Origin: Pseudomonadota bacterium
Lineage (GTDB): Bacteria > Myxococcota > Polyangia > GCA-2747355 > JACKDQ01
NCBI GenBank assembly: GCA_030591195.1
Contig: JAUVBO010000214.1
Span: 1-5,994 of the forward strand
Direction: 5' to 3'
Length of the DNA stretch: 5,994 bases
Part shown: piece after piece, positions 1 to 5,976 of the stretch
How positions within the stretch are numbered: position 1 is the first letter of the stretch
How the letters are laid out: each line of letters begins with the position of its first letter
The notes under the pieces: generated by a model
Database searches by the model: none
Seen by the model: only the letters and a program-made list of their open reading frames with translations
Told to the model about the DNA's origin: nothing
Made by a program: the position numbers and the translations under genes

Positions 1-141
1 CTCTGTCGGTGGCTGCCGATGCTGACCGCCCGGGTCGAGAAGGCCGAGGGCGAGGTCTTTTTCCGGGTCCTCGGCGCCGCCGATCACCTCACGCGCGGCG
101 AGAAGCAACGGCTCGAGGTCGCGATGGCCAGCGTGGCCTGA
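1..141 (+). CDS. C-terminal fragment of a probable TorD/NarJ-type molybdoenzyme chaperone
   Basis: The frame is open from the window edge to a TGA at 139-141, giving the last 46 residues of a protein whose start lies outside. The visible part reads W-L-P near its beginning, then a charged helix (TARVEKAEGE), an aromatic pair (VFFRVL) and a leucine-rich final helix. This spacing of a WLP segment, an FF/FY pair and a terminal helix is like the last part of TorD/DmsD/NarJ chaperones, which bind the signal peptide and apo form of DMSO-reductase-family molybdoenzymes before Tat export. The match is to a weakly conserved region and comes from pattern memory. The support from context is good: tatA follows at once and moaA lies downstream. 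The TGA is part of the tatA Shine-Dalgarno stretch, so the two genes are almost certainly cotranscribed. Alternative: an unrelated helical protein. Confidence 0.5.
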   Translation, partial: LCRWLPMLTARVEKAEGEVFFRVLGAADHLTRGEKQRLEVAMASVA

Positions 142-151
142 GGAGGGTTCG

Positions 152-361
152 ATGTTCGGACTGGGAGCGACCGAGCTGCTGATCATCCTTGCGATCCTGG
201 TCGTCCTGTTCGGCGCCCGCCGGATCCCCAGGCTTGCCCGCTCGCTCGGCGAGGCGGTCCAGTCGTTTCGAACCGCCGGCGCCGAGCGGGACAACGCCGT
301 AGCCGCGGCAGGGCAGGTCACGGCGGCGCCCGCGGGCGACGAAGGGGCGATCAAGAGCTAG
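152..361 (+). CDS. tatA: Sec-independent protein translocase subunit TatA
   Basis: TatA forms the size-adaptable membrane pathway by which TatBC-bound folded proteins cross the cytoplasmic membrane. The 69-residue product has the standard architecture: a very short N-terminus with a polar Glu8, one transmembrane helix (about residues 8-20), the Phe20-Gly21 hinge, a basic amphipathic helix (about 22-40, ARRIPRLARSLGEAVQSFR) and a low-complexity Ala/Gly-rich acidic tail. Length is at the short end for TatA. An AGGAGGG ribosome binding site at 141-147 sits four bases before the ATG and overlaps the stop of the preceding gene, so translation is likely coupled. No tatB or tatC is visible, so this is probably an accessory copy dedicated to the cluster. 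That agrees with export of a folded, cofactor-containing enzyme. TatB is less likely because the tail is too short; TatA and TatE cannot be separated by sequence alone. Confidence 0.9.
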   Translation: MFGLGATELLIILAILVVLFGARRIPRLARSLGEAVQSFRTAGAERDNAVAAAGQVTAAPAGDEGAIKS

Positions 362-474: not shown

Positions 475-1923
475 ATGCTCAGGCGAGTCGCCGACCTTCT
501 GCCCACCCTATGGAGCAATTGGACCGCGCTGCTCGGCACGGCACTGGCGACCGTCTCGGGCAACGTGATGCTGATCTTCTTCGTCGTCGACACCGCCACC
601 GCGGTGACGAATCCCTACGCGATGGGCTTCGCCTACCTGTTGATGCCGCCGGTGTTCGTCATCGGGCTGGTGCTGATCGCCTTCGGTTCCTGGCGAGCCA
701 GGCGGTTGGAACGGAGCCCGTCGGTGATCAGCGAGGCCGTGAGCATGGTGATGGCCGACCGCCGGACCCGCCGTCGGCTGTGGTTCGTCGTCTTGGGCAC
801 GCTGGCCAACGTCACCATCGTCTCGGTCGTCGCCTACAAGGGGATCACCTACACCAACTCGGTCGACTTCTGCGGCAAGCTTTGCCACTCGGCGATGGCG
901 CCCGAGTACTTGGCGTACAAGCGCTCGCCGCACGCCCGCGTCCCCTGCGCCGGCTGCCATATCGGCGAGGGGGCCTCGTGGTTTGTCCAGTCGAAGCTCT
1001 CCGGAATGGGCCAGGTCTGGGCGATCTTCCGCGGCAAGTACTCGCGGCCGATCAAGACGCCGATCCACAACCTGCGTCCCGCGCCCGAGACTTGCGAGAA
1101 GTGCCACTGGCCGGCCAAGTTCCACGGCACGCGCCTCCTGGTGCGGCACATCTACAAGAGCGACGAGAAGAACACCCGCGAGACCAACATCGTGCGGCTG
1201 AACGTCGGCGGGATGGACCGGCGCAAGGGCCGCTTCGTCGGCATTCACTGGCACGTCAGCCCCGGGGTGAAGATCTCCTACGAGGCGCTCGACGCGAAGC
1301 GGGCCAAGATCGGGAAGATCACGGTCGAGGAGCAGGGAAAGAAGACGCGGGTGTACCACCCGCCGGCCGACAGCAAGGGCAAGCGGTCGGCGGGCGAGGT
1401 GGTCGAGAGACGGGTGATGGACTGCGTCGACTGCCACAACCGCCCGTCGCACACCTTCGACCCCCTGCCCGAGAGGGCCGTGGACGCCGCGCTGACCCTC
1501 GGCAAGATCGACGACACGCTGCCGTTCATCCGCAAGCGGGCGATCGCGCTGCTACGCGATACCTCGATCGCGCCGGCGGCGGCAGCCGCGCGCTACGGGG
1601 ACGCGCTCCGGCGATTCTATCGCGGGAGGTATCCTCGCCTGGCCAAGAGCAAGGCCAGGTCGATCACCAAGGCTGCGGGTGAGATCGCTTGGATCTACCG
1701 GCGGAACATCTTTCCCCAGATGAAGATCGGCTGGGGCACCTACCCCTTGCACATCGGCCATCGGACGACCACCGAGGGCTGCTACCGCTGCCACGACGAT
1801 GAGCACGCGACGAGCCAAGGCGTGACGGTGTCCCAGGACTGTGACCAGTGCCACGAGATCCTCGCCGAGGAAGAAGAAAAGCCTGACGTGCCCCCGGGCC
1901 TGCTCCAGCTGGGGCGCATGTGA
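475..1923 (+). CDS. Membrane-anchored multiheme cytochrome c, NapC/NirT (ImcH-like) type
   Basis: The predicted 482-residue protein is an inner-membrane c-type cytochrome that probably takes electrons from quinol and passes them to a periplasmic redox partner. Three hydrophobic helices (about residues 17-39, 49-71 and 101-121) precede a periplasmic haem domain. Canonical CXXCH sites begin at C158, C207, C317, C436 and C456. The first site is C133-G-K-L-C137-H138, which is CX3CH. Met141 follows it and could be an axial ligand, as the Met after haem 1 is in NrfH. The segments PHARVPCAGCHIGEGASWFVQSKLSG and RPAPETCEKCHWPAKF belong to the NapC/NirT superfamily. Classic NapC and NrfH have one anchor helix and four haems; three helices and more haems recall ImcH of Geobacter, but I could not align them. 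The start is supported by GAGG at 464-467, seven bases before the ATG. The tail is acidic (AEEEEKPD). It lies between Tat and molybdenum cofactor genes, so its partner may be a molybdoenzyme. Confidence 0.92.
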   Translation: MLRRVADLLPTLWSNWTALLGTALATVSGNVMLIFFVVDTATAVTNPYAMGFAYLLMPPVFVIGLVLIAFGSWRARRLERSPSVISEAVSMVMADRRTRRRLWFVVLGTLANVTIVSVVAYKGITYTNSVDFCGKLCHSAMAPEYLAYKRSPHARVPCAGCHIGEGASWFVQSKLSGMGQVWAIFRGKYSRPIKTPIHNLRPAPETCEKCHWPAKFHGTRLLVRHIYKSDEKNTRETNIVRLNVGGMDRRKGRFVGIHWHVSPGVKISYEALDAKRAKIGKITVEEQGKKTRVYHPPADSKGKRSAGEVVERRVMDCVDCHNRPSHTFDPLPERAVDAALTLGKIDDTLPFIRKRAIALLRDTSIAPAAAAARYGDALRRFYRGRYPRLAKSKARSITKAAGEIAWIYRRNIFPQMKIGWGTYPLHIGHRTTTEGCYRCHDDEHATSQGVTVSQDCDQCHEILAEEEEKPDVPPGLLQLGRM

Positions 1924-2062: not shown

Positions 2063-2077
2063 TGGCACGGGGCTTGC
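2063..2077 (+). promoter_or_regulatory. Sigma-54 (RpoN) promoter for moaA and downstream genes
   Basis: TGGCAC-GGGGC-TTGC is an exact match to the core sigma-54 consensus TGGCAC-N5-TTGC, with the invariant GG at 2064-2065 and GC at 2076-2077, ten bases between them. Transcription should start near 2089. The message would then begin almost at the ribosome binding site (2090-2096) and have a leader of only about 13 bases before the GTG of moaA. The promoter falls between the cytochrome gene and moaA, and a sigma-54 activator is encoded two genes downstream, which strengthens the call. Confidence 0.85.
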
Positions 2078-2089
2078 GTGACTGAGGTT

Positions 2090-2101: not shown

Positions 2102-3067
2102 GTGCGCCGAACGATGACCAGTCGGACAACTGGGTTCTACATCAGGGTTTCGGTGACGGACCGCTGCAACCTGCGGTGCCGTTACTGTCGCCCGGCCGAG
2201 GGGCCTGCAGCAGGGGCGTCCGACACGCAGCCTCTCGACGACGAGACATTGCTGGGGATTCTCCAGGCGATTGGCAATGCGGTGCCGATATGCAAAATAC
2301 GGCTGACCGGCGGCGAGCCGTTGGTCCGCCGCGAGCTGCCGGGGTTGATCGAGGCGCTACGCGTGGGTTTCCCCGAGGCCTGCATCGGGTTGACGACCAA
2401 CGGCACGCGACTCGCCGCGCAGGCAGGGCGGCTGCGGCGGGCCGGCGTAGACGCCGTCAACGTCAGCCTCGACACGACCGACGCAGCTCGGTTCTCCGTT
2501 CTCACTGGCGGCGGCCTCTTGACTGACGTGCTCGCCGGGCTGTCTGCCGCGCGAGCTCAAGGGTTTCGGTCGCTGAAGCTCAACGCGGTGCTTCGCCGCT
2601 CCGGCCTCCGCGACATGGTCGAGCTGGTGCGCGTGGCCGACGCGCACGGGGCCGAGGCGCGCTTCATCGAGCTGATGCCCGTCGGCGCCGGGGCGGCGAT
2701 TTTCACGCAGGAGTACGTCTCCGTCGACCAGGGGTTGCAGACACTCCGTGGCGCGATGACCTACCTTGGTCCCGTCGGCCAGCAGGGGACCGCCATGCGC
2801 CACCGCCTCCGCCTCGGGAGCAGGGAGGTCACCGTCGGCTTCATCGCCCCGGTGTCGGTGCCCTTCTGTGGTGCGTGCGATCGGCTCCGCCTCGACGCGC
2901 GTGGCCGGCTGTACGCCTGCATGCGGTCGGTCAGGGGTGTCGACCTCGCCGCCAGGCTGGGGCAGGGGGACGACGCGGTTGGCCGGGCGGTTGGCGCGGT
3001 GGTGGCCCGCAAGCGCACGATGCCCTCGGCGTGGCCCCGACGGGACATGGTCGCGATTGGAGGATGA
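2102..3067 (+). CDS. moaA: GTP 3',8-cyclase MoaA (molybdenum cofactor biosynthesis)
   Basis: MoaA is a cytoplasmic radical-SAM enzyme that converts GTP to 3',8-cyclo-dihydro-GTP, which MoaC turns into cyclic pyranopterin phosphate, the first intermediate of molybdenum cofactor. The 321-residue product (E. coli MoaA has 329) shows the full motif set. IRVSVTDRCNLRCRYC carries the CX3CX2C cluster ligands C22, C26 and C29. LTGGEP (68-73), TTNGTRL (98-104), VSLDT (121-125) and FIELMPVG (188-195) follow. The C-terminal cluster is C256, C259 and C273 (CX2CX13C). The chain ends in the Gly-Gly tail (320-321) needed for activity, preceded by RRDMVAI. All key residues are present, so the enzyme should be active. 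The start is a GTG chosen by its ribosome binding site. No moaC, moaD or moaE is visible. This copy is probably extra and induced with a molybdoenzyme through the sigma-54 promoter just upstream. Confidence 0.95.
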   Translation: MRRTMTSRTTGFYIRVSVTDRCNLRCRYCRPAEGPAAGASDTQPLDDETLLGILQAIGNAVPICKIRLTGGEPLVRRELPGLIEALRVGFPEACIGLTTNGTRLAAQAGRLRRAGVDAVNVSLDTTDAARFSVLTGGGLLTDVLAGLSAARAQGFRSLKLNAVLRRSGLRDMVELVRVADAHGAEARFIELMPVGAGAAIFTQEYVSVDQGLQTLRGAMTYLGPVGQQGTAMRHRLRLGSREVTVGFIAPVSVPFCGACDRLRLDARGRLYACMRSVRGVDLAARLGQGDDAVGRAVGAVVARKRTMPSAWPRRDMVAIGG

Positions 3068-3151: not shown

Positions 3152-4543
3152 GTGAAGATTCTGTTGGTCGAGGACGATCTGGCGGTCAGTACCACCATGA
3201 GAGATGCCCTGCTGGAAGCGGGGCATCTGGTCGAGGTGCATCGAGATGGCTTCGATGCGAAGGACGCGCTCGCCGAGCACTCCTTTGACCTCCTGCTCGC
3301 CGACGTGCGCCTGCCCGGCATGGACGGCGTGGCGCTCTTTCGCTTCGCTCGCCGGGTTCAGCCCCACTGCGCGGCGGTGTTGGTTTCCGCCTACGCGGAC
3401 ATCGATACCGCGGTGGCGGTCATGCGCGAGGGCGCGGTCGATTACCTCGCCAAGCCGTTCAAGCTGAAGGCGTTGGCGGAGCTGGTGGCAAAGGTGGAGC
3501 AGCAGGGTCACTTCGCCGACGCGCTGACGGCTGCTCGACGTCCAGAGCGGGGCGCGGAGCCGGACGACGACGAGCTGCTCGTCGGTCGCTCGGTCGCGAT
3601 GCGGGCCGTCCGCAACCGCATCGCCGCGGCCGCCGAAGCTGGCGTCAACGTGCTGATCACCGGGGAGACCGGCACCGGCAAGGAGCTGGCCGCGCGAACG
3701 CTACACCAGCGCTCAGCGCGGTCCGTGCGACCATTCATCCAGATCAACTGCGCTGCGATCCCGCCCGAGCTCTTCGAGTCCGAGATGTTCGGACACGAGC
3801 GAGGAGCCTTCACCGGCGCCGAGCGCAGCCGGGCGGGTCGCGTGGCCGTCGCGGACGGCGGGGTCCTGTTTCTCGACGAGATCGGGGAGCTGAAGCTCGA
3901 GCACCAGGCCAAGCTGCTTCGGGTCGCCGACGCCGGAAGCTTCGAGCGCGTCGGCGGCGACCGGCCGGCCCAGGTGGACCTAACGCTGATCTCGGCGACC
4001 AACCGCGATCTGGCCGACGACGTCGCCAGTGGGCGATTTCGCCGGGACCTGTTCTTCCGCCTCAACGTGATCGAGATCGCGTTGCCGCCGCTGAGGGAAC
4101 GCAGGGCCGATATTCCGCTGCTCGCCGCGACCTTTCTCGGCGAGCTCGCCGAGCGCGCGGGTCTAGCGATGCCGCGGCTGACCCCGGCGGCGATGGCCGC
4201 GCTGGCGACGCACGACTATCCGGGCAATGTGCGGGAGCTGCGTCATGCCCTCGAACAGGCGGTGGCGCTGTCGCGCGGCGCGACGATCGACGTCGGTCAC
4301 CTGCCCCAGCAGGCGTTCGAGCCGGTGGAGGCTCGCGAGCCGGGCGCGGGGCTGATGCGCCTGTCGGAGGCGGCCCGCCAGTTCGAGCGGGCCTACATCG
4401 AGCGTGCTCTCGACACCACGCAGGGAAGGCGCAAGGAAGCGGCCCGCCGGCTCGGCATCTCACGCAAGAGCCTCTGGCAGAAAACGAAGAAGGTAGGCCC
4501 ACTTGCCGGGGTTGCTTGCGCCAAGCCTCACGAGGATGAATAA
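3152..4543 (+). CDS. Sigma-54-dependent response regulator (NtrC/AioR class)
   Basis: This 463-residue cytoplasmic protein should, when phosphorylated, form a ring at enhancer sites and use ATP to open sigma-54 promoters. The receiver domain (1-118) has acidic residues D8 and D9, phosphoacceptor D51 (LLADVRLPGMDG), switch S79 and K101 of KPF. The AAA+ domain (about 143-375) has Walker A GETGTGKE (171-178), the sigma-54 contact loop GAFTGA (218-223), Walker B VLFLDEIGEL (D242, E243), SATNRDL (281-287), the arginine-finger region FRRDLFFRLN and PGNVREL (357-363). A Fis-type helix-turn-helix lies at about 405-446 (QGRRKEAARRLGISRKSLWQK). All catalytic residues are intact. The partner kinase is not in the window. 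It follows moaA by 84 bases and so probably shares its sigma-54 promoter, which it may itself activate. The adjacent PhnD-like gene makes it resemble AioR or ArxR, but the sequence alone shows only the NtrC class. Confidence 0.93.
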   Translation: MKILLVEDDLAVSTTMRDALLEAGHLVEVHRDGFDAKDALAEHSFDLLLADVRLPGMDGVALFRFARRVQPHCAAVLVSAYADIDTAVAVMREGAVDYLAKPFKLKALAELVAKVEQQGHFADALTAARRPERGAEPDDDELLVGRSVAMRAVRNRIAAAAEAGVNVLITGETGTGKELAARTLHQRSARSVRPFIQINCAAIPPELFESEMFGHERGAFTGAERSRAGRVAVADGGVLFLDEIGELKLEHQAKLLRVADAGSFERVGGDRPAQVDLTLISATNRDLADDVASGRFRRDLFFRLNVIEIALPPLRERRADIPLLAATFLGELAERAGLAMPRLTPAAMAALATHDYPGNVRELRHALEQAVALSRGATIDVGHLPQQAFEPVEAREPGAGLMRLSEAARQFERAYIERALDTTQGRRKEAARRLGISRKSLWQKTKKVGPLAGVACAKPHEDE

Positions 4544-4585: not shown

Positions 4586-5503
4586 ATGGTCGCGGCGCAG
4601 CCGGAATCAGTCTTTATTGTCATCGCCCTGGCGGCACTGTCTGCCTCCTGTCGCGACGAGGTGGCGGTGCTGAACTTCGCCGAACGCGTTCCCACGCGTG
4701 CGGCGGTGGCGCGGCCCAGCAGGCAGCAACTGCGCGTGGCGATCGCCGCGATGATCTCGCCCAAGGAAACCGCAGCGCAGTACGAAAAGGTCGTGAGCGA
4801 GCTGGGCAAGGCGCTGAAGGAGCCCACCTCGCTGGTTCACGGCCGCACCTATGGCCACGTCAACGAGTTGTTCGACGCCGGCAAGCTGGATCTGGCGTTT
4901 CTTTGTACGGGCGGTTATCTGGCCCTGAAGAAGCGCACGCCGGGCGTGACCGTGCTGGCCGTGCCACAGGTCGATGGCAAGACGACCTACGAGTCGCTGG
5001 TGATCGTCAGAGTCGGCAGTCCCGCGACCCGGTTTGCCGACCTGAGGGGTGCCGCGTTTGCCTTCACCGACCCGCTGTCCCAGACCGGGTACCTCTACCC
5101 GGCGTCGCGGGTCAAGCAGCTCGGCGAGACCAAGGACAGCTTCTTTTCCTCCTACACCTTCGTCGGGAGCCACGATCGCGCGATACGGGCGGTCCAGGGC
5201 GGGCAGCGCAGCGCCGCGGCGGTGGACAGCCTCGTCTTTCGATACTTCGCCAAGCACGCGCCCGATCGCGTCCGCGGCCTGCGCGTGCTCGAGCGCTCAC
5301 CCGCCTTTGGCATGCCGCCCGTCGTCGCGTCGGCGAGGATCCCGGCGGCCCGCCAGCGACGATGGAGATCGGCGCTGCTCCAGCTACATCGGCGCGCTTC
5401 CGCAAGGGATGCGCTGCGGGCGCTCGGCATCGACCGGTTCGTCACGCCTCGGCCGAGCTTGTATCGGACCGCCCGGGAGCTCTACGACCGGGCTAACCCC
5501 TGA
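4586..5503 (+). CDS. PhnD-family periplasmic binding protein, AioX/ArxX-like oxyanion sensor candidate
   Basis: The 305-residue product belongs to the phosphate/phosphite/phosphonate-binding (PhnD-like) family. After a hydrophobic export segment (9-21) ending in Cys22 (LSASC, a loose lipobox) comes lobe one, LRVAIAAMISPKETAAQYEKV, and the HVNELFDAGKLDLAFLCTGGY motif, where PhnD proteins line the ligand pocket. FTDPLSQTGYLYP (160-172) is the family's serine/glycine oxyanion-binding loop, and VGSHDRAIRAVQGGQRSAAAVDS (193-215) is the second-lobe signature. Apart from Cys22 the only cysteine is Cys107 in the pocket motif. AioX, the arsenite sensor of AioXSR, uses a single cysteine at nearly the same number. 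No ABC permease or ATPase gene is adjacent, but a sigma-54 response regulator ends 42 bases upstream, so a sensing role is likelier than transport. The export segment has no Lys or Arg before it, which is odd and makes the start or localisation less certain. An ordinary phosphonate- or phosphite-binding role is the alternative. Confidence 0.85.
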   Translation: MVAAQPESVFIVIALAALSASCRDEVAVLNFAERVPTRAAVARPSRQQLRVAIAAMISPKETAAQYEKVVSELGKALKEPTSLVHGRTYGHVNELFDAGKLDLAFLCTGGYLALKKRTPGVTVLAVPQVDGKTTYESLVIVRVGSPATRFADLRGAAFAFTDPLSQTGYLYPASRVKQLGETKDSFFSSYTFVGSHDRAIRAVQGGQRSAAAVDSLVFRYFAKHAPDRVRGLRVLERSPAFGMPPVVASARIPAARQRRWRSALLQLHRRASARDALRALGIDRFVTPRPSLYRTARELYDRANP

Positions 5504-5583: not shown

Positions 5584-5598
5584 GCCGTGGATTTGTCT

Positions 5599-5604
5599 GG
5601 GAGG
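5599..5604 (+). promoter_or_regulatory. Ribosome binding site that sets the sigma factor start
   Basis: GGGAGG lies six bases before the ATG at 5611. The in-frame GTG at 5587 would precede this site and is less likely to be used. Confidence 0.7.
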
Positions 5605-5610
5605 CGCGTA

Positions 5611-5976
5611 ATGAGAGTCGTGGAGTCGCTTGAGCGCGGCGACCACCGATCGGGGCACCGCACGGCCTCCGCGACACCACTGGCTGGCGCGGAGCGGCGT
5701 GCGCTCAGCAGACGGTTCCTGGCGCTCGCTCCGCGGATTCACCAGTTCTTCTGGAGGAGGTTCGCGGACGCGTCCCTTGCGGACGAGCTGGTGCAGAGGA
5801 CGTTCTTCCTGATGCACCGAGCGGCCCACGAGTACCGGACCGGCTCGCCAGTCAATCCCTGGATCTTCACCATCGCCGCGCGGGTCGCGGCGACTCGAGC
5901 CCGTGATGGTGGTGCCTCGTCGTGGGTGTTGCGAGAAGCGAGATGTTGGCAGCGCGCGGACGGCGCTGCCGGATAG
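5611..5976 (+). CDS. Short ECF-like sigma-70 factor with region 2 only (truncated, frameshifted or atypical)
   Basis: The 121-residue product matches sigma-70 region 2 of ECF sigma factors over about residues 35-98: a helix ALAPRIHQFFWRRF, the core RNA polymerase-binding segment SLADELVQRTFFLMHRA (55-71) and the -10 recognition helix NPWIFTIAARVAATRAR (82-98). ECF factors are normally about 160-200 residues and carry a region 4 helix-turn-helix that reads the -35 element. Here the chain ends 23 residues after region 2 with a non-family tail rich in Ala, Gly, Arg and Trp. The +1 shifted frame (from about 5906) stays open to the window end at 5994, so a frameshift followed by linker and region 4 beyond the edge is possible, though the shifted reading is not clearly sigma-like. 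The first 30 residues are basic and unlike known families. The gene has its own 107-base upstream region with repeats, so it may be a separate transcription unit. No anti-sigma gene is visible. Confidence 0.65.
   Translation: MRVVESLERGDHRSGHRTASATPLAGAERRALSRRFLALAPRIHQFFWRRFADASLADELVQRTFFLMHRAAHEYRTGSPVNPWIFTIAARVAATRARDGGASSWVLREARCWQRADGAAG

What the first reader, a model, noticed from the sequence alone, without database searches (positions are those of the whole stretch)
4586..5503. PhnD-like binding protein with a lone pocket cysteine beside an NtrC-class regulator: candidate oxyanion sensor
The sequence shows a PhnD-family protein whose only cysteine outside the lipobox, Cys107, sits in the DLAFLCTGGY pocket motif. 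No transporter genes flank it, but a sigma-54 response regulator does. In AioXSR systems a PhnD-like protein senses arsenite through one cysteine (Cys106/Cys108 in studied AioX) and signals via kinase AioS to the sigma-54 regulator AioR. The combination here suggests a related sensor tied to an anaerobic molybdoenzyme locus. The ligand (arsenite, arsenate or another oxyanion) is unknown.
Basis: partly seen in the sequence, partly recalled or inferred. Interest (0 to 1): 0.7.

Follow-up and report, generated by a model that had tools for sequence, protein, structure and literature searches.

The report
ArrX-type arsenic sensor with its regulator
This DNA fragment carries a sensor protein of the family that detects arsenic oxyanions, next to the gene switch it most likely works with, inside what looks like a respiratory operon; relatives of this pair sit beside unusual molybdenum enzymes, one of them in what is very probably an arsenate-breathing bacterium that lacks the classic arsenate reductase.

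Summary
The ORF at 4586-5503 encodes a 305-aa PhnD-fold protein (X) whose only cysteines are Cys22 (lipobox) and Cys107. Cys107 aligns with the pocket cysteine of AioX and ArrX, and the seven AioX pocket residues are kept, one as Ser-to-Thr. The best solved match by sequence and fold is ArrX. The cysteine is a family trait: 133 of 133 tree rows have it. X is sister to a Myxococcota clade; in all eight genomes of that clade the best match to the window's sigma-54 regulator (R) is the one at the X locus. All eight loci have a kinase beside X, four have TtrA-like molybdoenzymes, four have acr3 within 17 kb. One genome is very probably Anaeromyxobacter sp. PSR-1, an arsenate respirer without arr. 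Best reading: an ArrX/AioX-type arsenic (or antimony) oxyanion sensor that switches on a molybdoenzyme respiratory operon through sigma-54. Not shown: ligand, enzyme (the contig starts too late) and kinase, absent here although 83 of 89 related loci have it beside X.

The parts
4586..5503 (+). X: PhnD-fold periplasmic lipoprotein (by lipobox), ArrX/AioX-type oxyanion sensor, 305 aa
   Evidence: PF12974 191.5 bits; ArrX E 9e-44, AioX 1e-26; AlphaFold mean pLDDT 89.6; Foldseek top hits ArrX then AioX
4649..4651 (+). Codon of Cys22, lipobox cysteine
   Evidence: sequence; Cys in at least 90% of the 30 aligned relatives; signal peptide not predicted by a tool
4904..4906 (+). Codon of Cys107, pocket cysteine in the column of AioX Cys106
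   Evidence: alignments; 133 of 133 tree rows
3152..4543 (+). R: sigma-54-dependent response regulator (receiver, AAA+ with GAFTGA, Fis HTH)
   Evidence: best match in all 8 sister-clade genomes is the regulator at the X locus
2102..3067 (+). moaA, molybdenum cofactor biosynthesis (GTP 3',8-cyclase)
   Evidence: PF06463 and PF04055; TIGR02666 252 bits, below the 284 cut-off
475..1923 (+). NapC/NirT-type multihaem cytochrome c with C7-like end (5 CXXCH), presumed quinol dehydrogenase
   Evidence: PF03264, PF14522; motifs; three window-clade X proteins have the same longest-contig length as close relatives of this cytochrome
152..361 (+). tatA/E, twin-arginine translocase subunit
   Evidence: PF02416 50.1 bits; tatA-like ORFs in 13 of 79 related loci
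1..141 (+). C-terminal 46 aa of an upstream gene; TorD-like chaperone by eye only
   Evidence: no Pfam hit even at E 10; pairwise alignment to 13 TorD loci weak
2063..2078 (+). sigma-54 (-24/-12) promoter-like site TGGCACGGGGCTTGCG, 23 bases before the moaA start
   Evidence: one mismatch; mean 0.12 expected, 21 of 200 shuffles have at least one

Best explanation
X is a periplasmic lipoprotein sensor of the AioX/ArxX/ArrX subfamily. An arsenic oxyanion (arsenate most likely, arsenite or an antimony oxyanion possible) binds in the pocket formed by Tyr89, Cys107, Tyr135, Ser165, Thr167, His196 and Asp214. Loaded X then activates a membrane histidine kinase S, not encoded on this contig, which phosphorylates R. 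R drives sigma-54 promoters, among them probably the one at 2063-2078 that would start moaA-R-X, and the promoter of a periplasmic, Tat-exported molybdoenzyme fed by the NapC/NirT cytochrome. Shown by computation: family, pocket residues, fold, and the R-X partnership by co-orthology. Inferred: ligand, kinase, target promoter, and the enzyme upstream of the contig.
For: ArrX and AioX are the top PDB matches by sequence and by fold (ArrX E 1.2e-29, 37% identity over 254 columns). The AioX pocket residues listed in PMC5908839 (parts 1-4 of 6 read) are present: five positions in 133 of 133 rows, Asp214 in 126 of 133, position 167 Thr or Ser. Of 117 PF12974 domain hits in fetched loci (some loci overlap), 107 have the Cys; the ten others include two with Gly, as in PhnD, and three receptors fused to HD-GYP or kinase domains with Asn or His. 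R: in 8 of 8 sister-clade genomes the regulator at the X locus is the best match (412-483 bits; best anywhere else in the 11 genomes 362). Of 89 loci, 83 have a kinase next to X, 44 a molybdoenzyme within 10 kb and 36 a TtrA-like one. acr3 lies within about 10 kb of X in 5 of 59 genomes (0.32 expected) and within about 17 kb in at least 8 of 59 (0.52 expected); in the sister clade 4 of 8 within 17 kb (0.10 expected). G048, very probably the arsenate respirer PSR-1, carries arsM, moaA, R, two TtrA-like enzymes, S and X on one contig. TtrA-type enzymes have been proposed as arsenate reductases in Pyrobaculum and PSR-1 (passage; title only).
Against: No ligand data. No enzyme and no kinase on the contig; 83 of 89 relatives have the kinase next to X. 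Pocket residues do not set arsenite versus arsenate choice (PMC5908839). Most enzymes near X in relatives are TtrA-like, a family that also reduces tetrathionate and selenate (PMC10100899, passages). acr3 was not seen within reach of X in 51 of 59 genomes, 17 of which gave no acr3 match at all. Two sister loci, L109 and L113, show neither a molybdoenzyme nor ars genes. In 3 of 11 genomes the best match to R is not X-linked. The cytochrome was not found beside X in any of the 79 genome loci. Two Thermoflexus-type loci have a Cys-bearing X with an ABC ATPase and no kinase.
Confidence: 0.7

Rival explanations
1. X senses a sulfur oxyanion (tetrathionate, thiosulfate) or selenium oxyanion and controls a TtrA- or PhsA-like reductase.
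For: Of 14 X-linked enzymes scanned, 11 score best with TtrA (349-562 bits, cut-off 1750) and 2 (L042, L108) with PhsA (412 and 281 bits, cut-off 694); none reaches its cut-off. TtrS kinases carry a PhnD-like domain (PMC5408782 and PMC11293645, passages).
Against: Three fused PF12974 receptors found here lack the cysteine, though no TtrS itself was compared. acr3 is enriched near X. ArrX is the nearest solved protein.
Confidence: 0.12
2. The ligand and substrate are antimony oxyanions (AnrA-like antimonate respiration).
For: A dissimilatory antimonate reductase AnrA of Geobacter sp. SVR is reported (passages and reference title in PMC13284237; the paper itself is not held). Geobacteraceae encode the same TtrA-like enzyme type at 68-77% identity to that of L011. 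A thiol pocket suits Sb(III) (general chemistry, recalled).
Against: I could not compare AnrA's sequence. ArrX, AioX and ArxX showed no antimonite binding in published ITC (PMC5908839).
Confidence: 0.1
3. The kinase was lost and X-R here is a decaying or differently wired remnant.
For: No kinase ORF between R and X or in the roughly 490 bases after X; 83 of 89 relatives have one beside X.
Against: X and R are full-length with the pocket residues and regulator domains present; both contig ends are open, so S may lie a few kb away.
Confidence: 0.06
4. X is the binding protein of a phosphonate or phosphite ABC transporter.
For: PF12974 and TIGR01098 matches; two related loci (L009, L013) have an ABC ATPase about 1.1 kb after X.
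Against: Nearer ArrX and AioX; PtxB and PhnD score far lower; neighbouring co-orthologous regulator; no transporter gene in the window.
Confidence: 0.02

Closest known systems
ArrX of Chrysiogenes arsenatis (PDB 6x6b, 6xl2 arsenate-bound)
   Same: Fold and pocket cysteine, 37% identity over 254 columns; ArrX binds arsenate (PMC5908839).
   Different: Its regulator ArrR is CitB-like without AAA+ (PMC5908839); here R is a sigma-54 AAA+ regulator. arrXSR is a module there; no kinase is seen here.
AioXSR of Rhizobium sp. NT-26
   Same: Cys106 column and an AtoC-type (sigma-54) regulator (PMC5908839).
   Different: 28% identity in the fold match, lower sequence score than ArrX; Aio enzyme there, unknown enzyme here.
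Myxococcota X-S-R loci, including the likely PSR-1 genome G048 (L105, L137)
   Same: Co-orthologous X and R; moaA directly before R in the same order in G048.
   Different: Kinase next to X there; TtrA-like enzymes and ars genes visible in several; no NapC/NirT cytochrome or tatA match in the G048 stretches searched.
TtrS/TtrR tetrathionate systems
   Same: PhnD-like sensing domain beside a TtrA-type reductase (passages).
   Different: Sensor fused to the kinase; fused PF12974 receptors seen here lack the pocket cysteine, but TtrS itself was not compared.

Membership tests
AioX/ArxX/ArrX sensor subfamily | PhnD-like type II binding-protein fold | tested here: met
AioX/ArxX/ArrX sensor subfamily | Pocket residues Tyr88, Cys106, Tyr131, Ser161, Ser163, His192, Asp210 (AioX numbering) | tested here: met
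   Tyr89, Cys107, Tyr135, Ser165, Thr167 (conservative change), His196, Asp214; list from PMC5908839
AioX/ArxX/ArrX sensor subfamily | Nearer to these sensors than to transporter binding proteins | tested here: met
   scores; the tree holds ArrX and AioX but no transporter outgroup, and both references sit on long branches
XSR module | Response regulator R encoded alongside | tested here: met
   R at 3152-4543; regulator at the X locus is best match in 8 of 8 sister-clade genomes
XSR module | Histidine kinase S encoded alongside | tested here: inconclusive
   none in the window; contig ends open; 83 of 89 relatives have it
XSR module | Aio, Arx or Arr molybdoenzyme alongside | tested here: inconclusive
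   the contig shows no enzyme gene and its upstream end is open; of 14 enzymes scanned in relatives 11 are nearest TtrA, 2 PhsA, 1 ArrA (L012)
AioX/ArxX/ArrX sensor subfamily | Binds arsenite or arsenate | not testable with these tools
   needs protein
PhnD/PtxB transporter binding proteins | Permease and ATPase genes alongside | tested here: inconclusive
   none in the window, but only about 490 bases follow X
PhnD/PtxB transporter binding proteins | No cysteine in the AioX Cys106 column (Gly in E. coli PhnD, PMC5908839) | tested here: not met
   Cys107 present

The most novel reading that the evidence does not exclude
Cys-bearing X sensors mark a large, little-recognised class of arsenic (or antimony) respiration run by TtrA- or PhsA-like molybdoenzymes in Myxococcota, Chloroflexota and others. 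The window is a new branch of it in which the kinase is split off and R-X is carried in a NapC-type cytochrome and moaA operon.
Probability: 0.4. Interest if true: 0.75.

Novelty: new variant of a known kind. Interest (0 to 1): 0.55.

Why it matters
Some bacteria breathe arsenate without the classic Arr enzyme; for Anaeromyxobacter sp. PSR-1 a tetrathionate-reductase homologue was proposed (title seen). Finding ArrX-type sensors with co-orthologous regulators beside such enzymes, in a genome that is very probably PSR-1, makes that proposal testable and gives a genomic marker for hidden arsenic or antimony respiration. The sensors could also serve as arsenic biosensors.

Tried and rejected
Viral contigs held no relative of X. 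Searches for the window's close cytochrome type found nothing at 1e-140 in 297 genomes of one phylum and 189 of another, so the host phylum stays unknown; the X relatives above 50% identity came only as proteins from the protein search, and I could not open their contigs. More distant cytochrome relatives (38-45%) exist in 8 of 11 X-bearing genomes, but none lies beside X in the 79 loci. The last protein search, with the L011 molybdoenzyme, showed none of the contig lengths 76132, 27939 or 50341 in its top 120, which says nothing either way; one sister-clade X (P0034) and one TtrA-like enzyme (P0247) do share 20776. The upstream 46-aa fragment could not be proved TorD. The ECF sigma fragment after X has no match in any fetched locus at E 0.1. 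The GTAACAA site at 1975-1988 resembles a published ArxR site, but I chose the pattern after seeing it and 32 of 200 shuffles give one: not used. Sigma-54-like sites with up to 2 mismatches occur in 8 of 9 hand-chosen intergenic regions of relatives: suggestive only.

Full report
What is there. The window is apparently a whole 5994-base contig, presumably metagenomic: its own proteins are listed with a longest contig of 5994, and no host genome is held. All genes named here read left to right: the last 46 aa of an unknown gene, tatA, a NapC/NirT-type multihaem cytochrome, moaA, a sigma-54 response regulator (R), the PhnD-like protein (X) and an ECF sigma fragment.

The observation. X is 305 aa from ATG 4586 with cysteines at 22 and 107 only. 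Cys107 aligns with the AioX and ArrX cysteines. It is C in 120 of 120 rows, window included, being the 120 listed of 721 hits, and in 133 of 133 rows of the X tree. Of the AioX pocket residues listed in PMC5908839 (parts 1-4 of 6 read), Tyr89, Cys107, Tyr135, Ser165 and His196 are invariant in those 133 rows, Asp214 is kept in 126, and position 167 is Thr (77) or Ser (56). Among 117 PF12974 domain hits in fetched loci (some loci overlap), 107 have the Cys. The ten others include two with Gly and three receptors fused to HD-GYP or histidine-kinase domains (Asn or His).

Family. By sequence the best solved proteins are ArrX (E 9e-44), AioX (1e-26), PtxB (3e-14) and, lower, PhnD of E. coli (5e-5). 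The AlphaFold model (mean pLDDT 89.6) matches ArrX first (E 1.2e-29), then AioX, then PtxB.

Partner. In the tree, window X lies in a 23-row clade (SH-aLRT 85) sister to a 12-row clade of Myxococcota type (98); the 35-row node has 96 (quick tree, no bootstrap). Window R was searched in 11 genomes that hold X; in six of them only 150 of more first-look candidates were scored. In the 8 whose X falls in the sister clade, the best match is the regulator at the X locus (412-483 bits; in G048 it lies about 8 kb from X). The best match anywhere else in the 11 genomes is 362 bits. In the other 3 genomes the best match is not the X-linked one. So R and X have travelled together in this clade.

Context in relatives. 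In 89 loci (79 and 10), a kinase lies next to X in 83. A sigma-54 regulator is within 4.5 kb in 20, a LuxR-type regulator in 47, neither in 22. A molybdoenzyme lies within 10 kb in 44 (36 of them TtrA-like, at 350 bits or more to one TtrA-like query, so other types are under-counted and short contigs cut the view), and moaA in 11. An ABC ATPase lies within 3 kb in 5 loci, in two of them (L009, L013) after X and without a kinase. Of 14 enzymes scanned with NCBIfam, 11 are nearest TtrA (349-562 bits), two nearest PhsA (L042, L108) and one nearest ArrA (L012, 1026 bits); none reaches its curated cut-off. In the eight sister loci, four have a TtrA-like enzyme (L011, L105, L106, L107), L108 a PhsA-like one, L053 ends inside the FeS gene, and L109 and L113 show none. 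A tatA-like ORF is present in 13 of 79 loci. The window's cytochrome type was not found beside X in any of the 79.

Arsenic link. Examples of ACR3, ArsA, ArsD and ArsR-type genes near X in L006, L024 and L107 were checked by profile. For ACR3 I searched 59 genomes (50 of the 79 loci and 9 others): 42 match, with 52 matches in all, fragments included. It lies within about 10 kb of X in 5 of 59 (L012, L024, L053, L066, G062; 0.32 expected) and within about 17 kb in at least 8 of 59 (adding G003, G022, G048; 0.52 expected); beyond 10 kb only genomes whose X had contig coordinates could be checked. Poisson tails are 2e-5 and 8e-8; for the sister clade, 4 of 8 within 17 kb against 0.10 expected. 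The distances were chosen after looking, so this is exploratory.

The PSR-1 case. PMC4432346 (read whole) reports Anaeromyxobacter sp. PSR-1, an arsenate respirer with three ars operons and no arr genes, in 344 contigs and 4,863,754 bases, 74.4% G+C. G048 is 4.9 Mb with exactly 344 contigs and three acr3 genes; fetched stretches are 69-76% G+C. On C340 it shows arsD, two arsC-like genes (below cut-off), a UspA-like gene, acr3, an arsR-type gene and arsM; on C343 arsD, arsA, a UspA-like gene, acr3, arsD and arsA. These fit the two orders given in the paper, except that on C343 arsR and arsC were not resolved by my gene caller; UspA is by eye. I therefore take G048 to be PSR-1, as an inference. 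On C340, after arsM, come an ECF sigma gene, a porin-like gene (by eye), moaA, R (49% identical to the window's), an FeS gene and a TtrA-like enzyme, then S and X (45%) on the other strand, and a trihaem cytochrome, FeS gene and second TtrA-like enzyme. [quoted passage not shown] PSR-1' exists (seen in reference lists only; not held). A TtrA was likewise hypothesised as an arsenate reductase in Pyrobaculum aerophilum (passage in PMC9751042).

Window operon. tatA, the cytochrome and moaA suit a Tat-exported periplasmic molybdoenzyme. Proteins of the close cytochrome type and of the window X clade share longest-contig lengths of 76132, 27939 and 50341 bases (P0010/P0130, P0004/P0138, P0014/P0144), so their linkage seems to recur; the contigs themselves were not seen. 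A sigma-54 promoter-like site sits 23 bases before moaA (mean 0.12 expected, 21 of 200 shuffles have at least one).

What is not shown. Ligand, kinase, enzyme and host are unknown. ArrX binds arsenate, and AioX and ArxX arsenite, with the same pocket residues (PMC5908839), so the ligand cannot be read from the pocket. [quoted passage not shown]

Novelty. A search for papers holding at least three of AioX, ArrX, ArxX, sensor and TtrA returned three papers, none with TtrA. That covers only the held open-access library, and the PSR-1 paper of 2020 could not be read, so the X-S-R genes there may already be in print.

On rereading the calls I corrected the number of enzymes nearest TtrA (11 of 14, from 349 bits) and the count of sister loci with a TtrA-like enzyme (four of eight).

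Noticed in passing
window 5587-5976: ECF sigma-70 fragment with region 2 only (PF04542, 34 bits), stopping early before the contig end; may be broken or misassembled.
   Followed up: partly
L009 and L013 (Thermoflexus-type Chloroflexota): Cys-bearing X with an ABC ATPase about 1.1 kb downstream and no kinase detected: perhaps a return from sensing to transport.
   Followed up: no
L105/L137 (G048, likely PSR-1): Two TtrA-like molybdoenzyme sets flank one X-S pair, with an arsM/ars operon, an ECF sigma gene and moaA upstream on the same contig.
   Followed up: partly
L004: Two tandem X-kinase-regulator sets on one 9.5-kb contig.
   Followed up: no
L036, L058, L059, L077: X with an adjacent kinase in archaeal MAGs (Methanoperedens, Methanosarcinaceae, Hydrothermarchaeota).
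   Followed up: no
L108 (G022): Sister-clade X-S-R locus with a PhsA-like 1011-aa molybdoenzyme, FeS subunit, torD, MOSC-like gene, moaA, arsR- and arsD-like genes.
   Followed up: partly
L117, L122: PF12974 domains fused to GAF, HD and partial GGDEF domains, without the pocket cysteine: possible oxyanion-type input to cyclic-di-GMP turnover.
   Followed up: no
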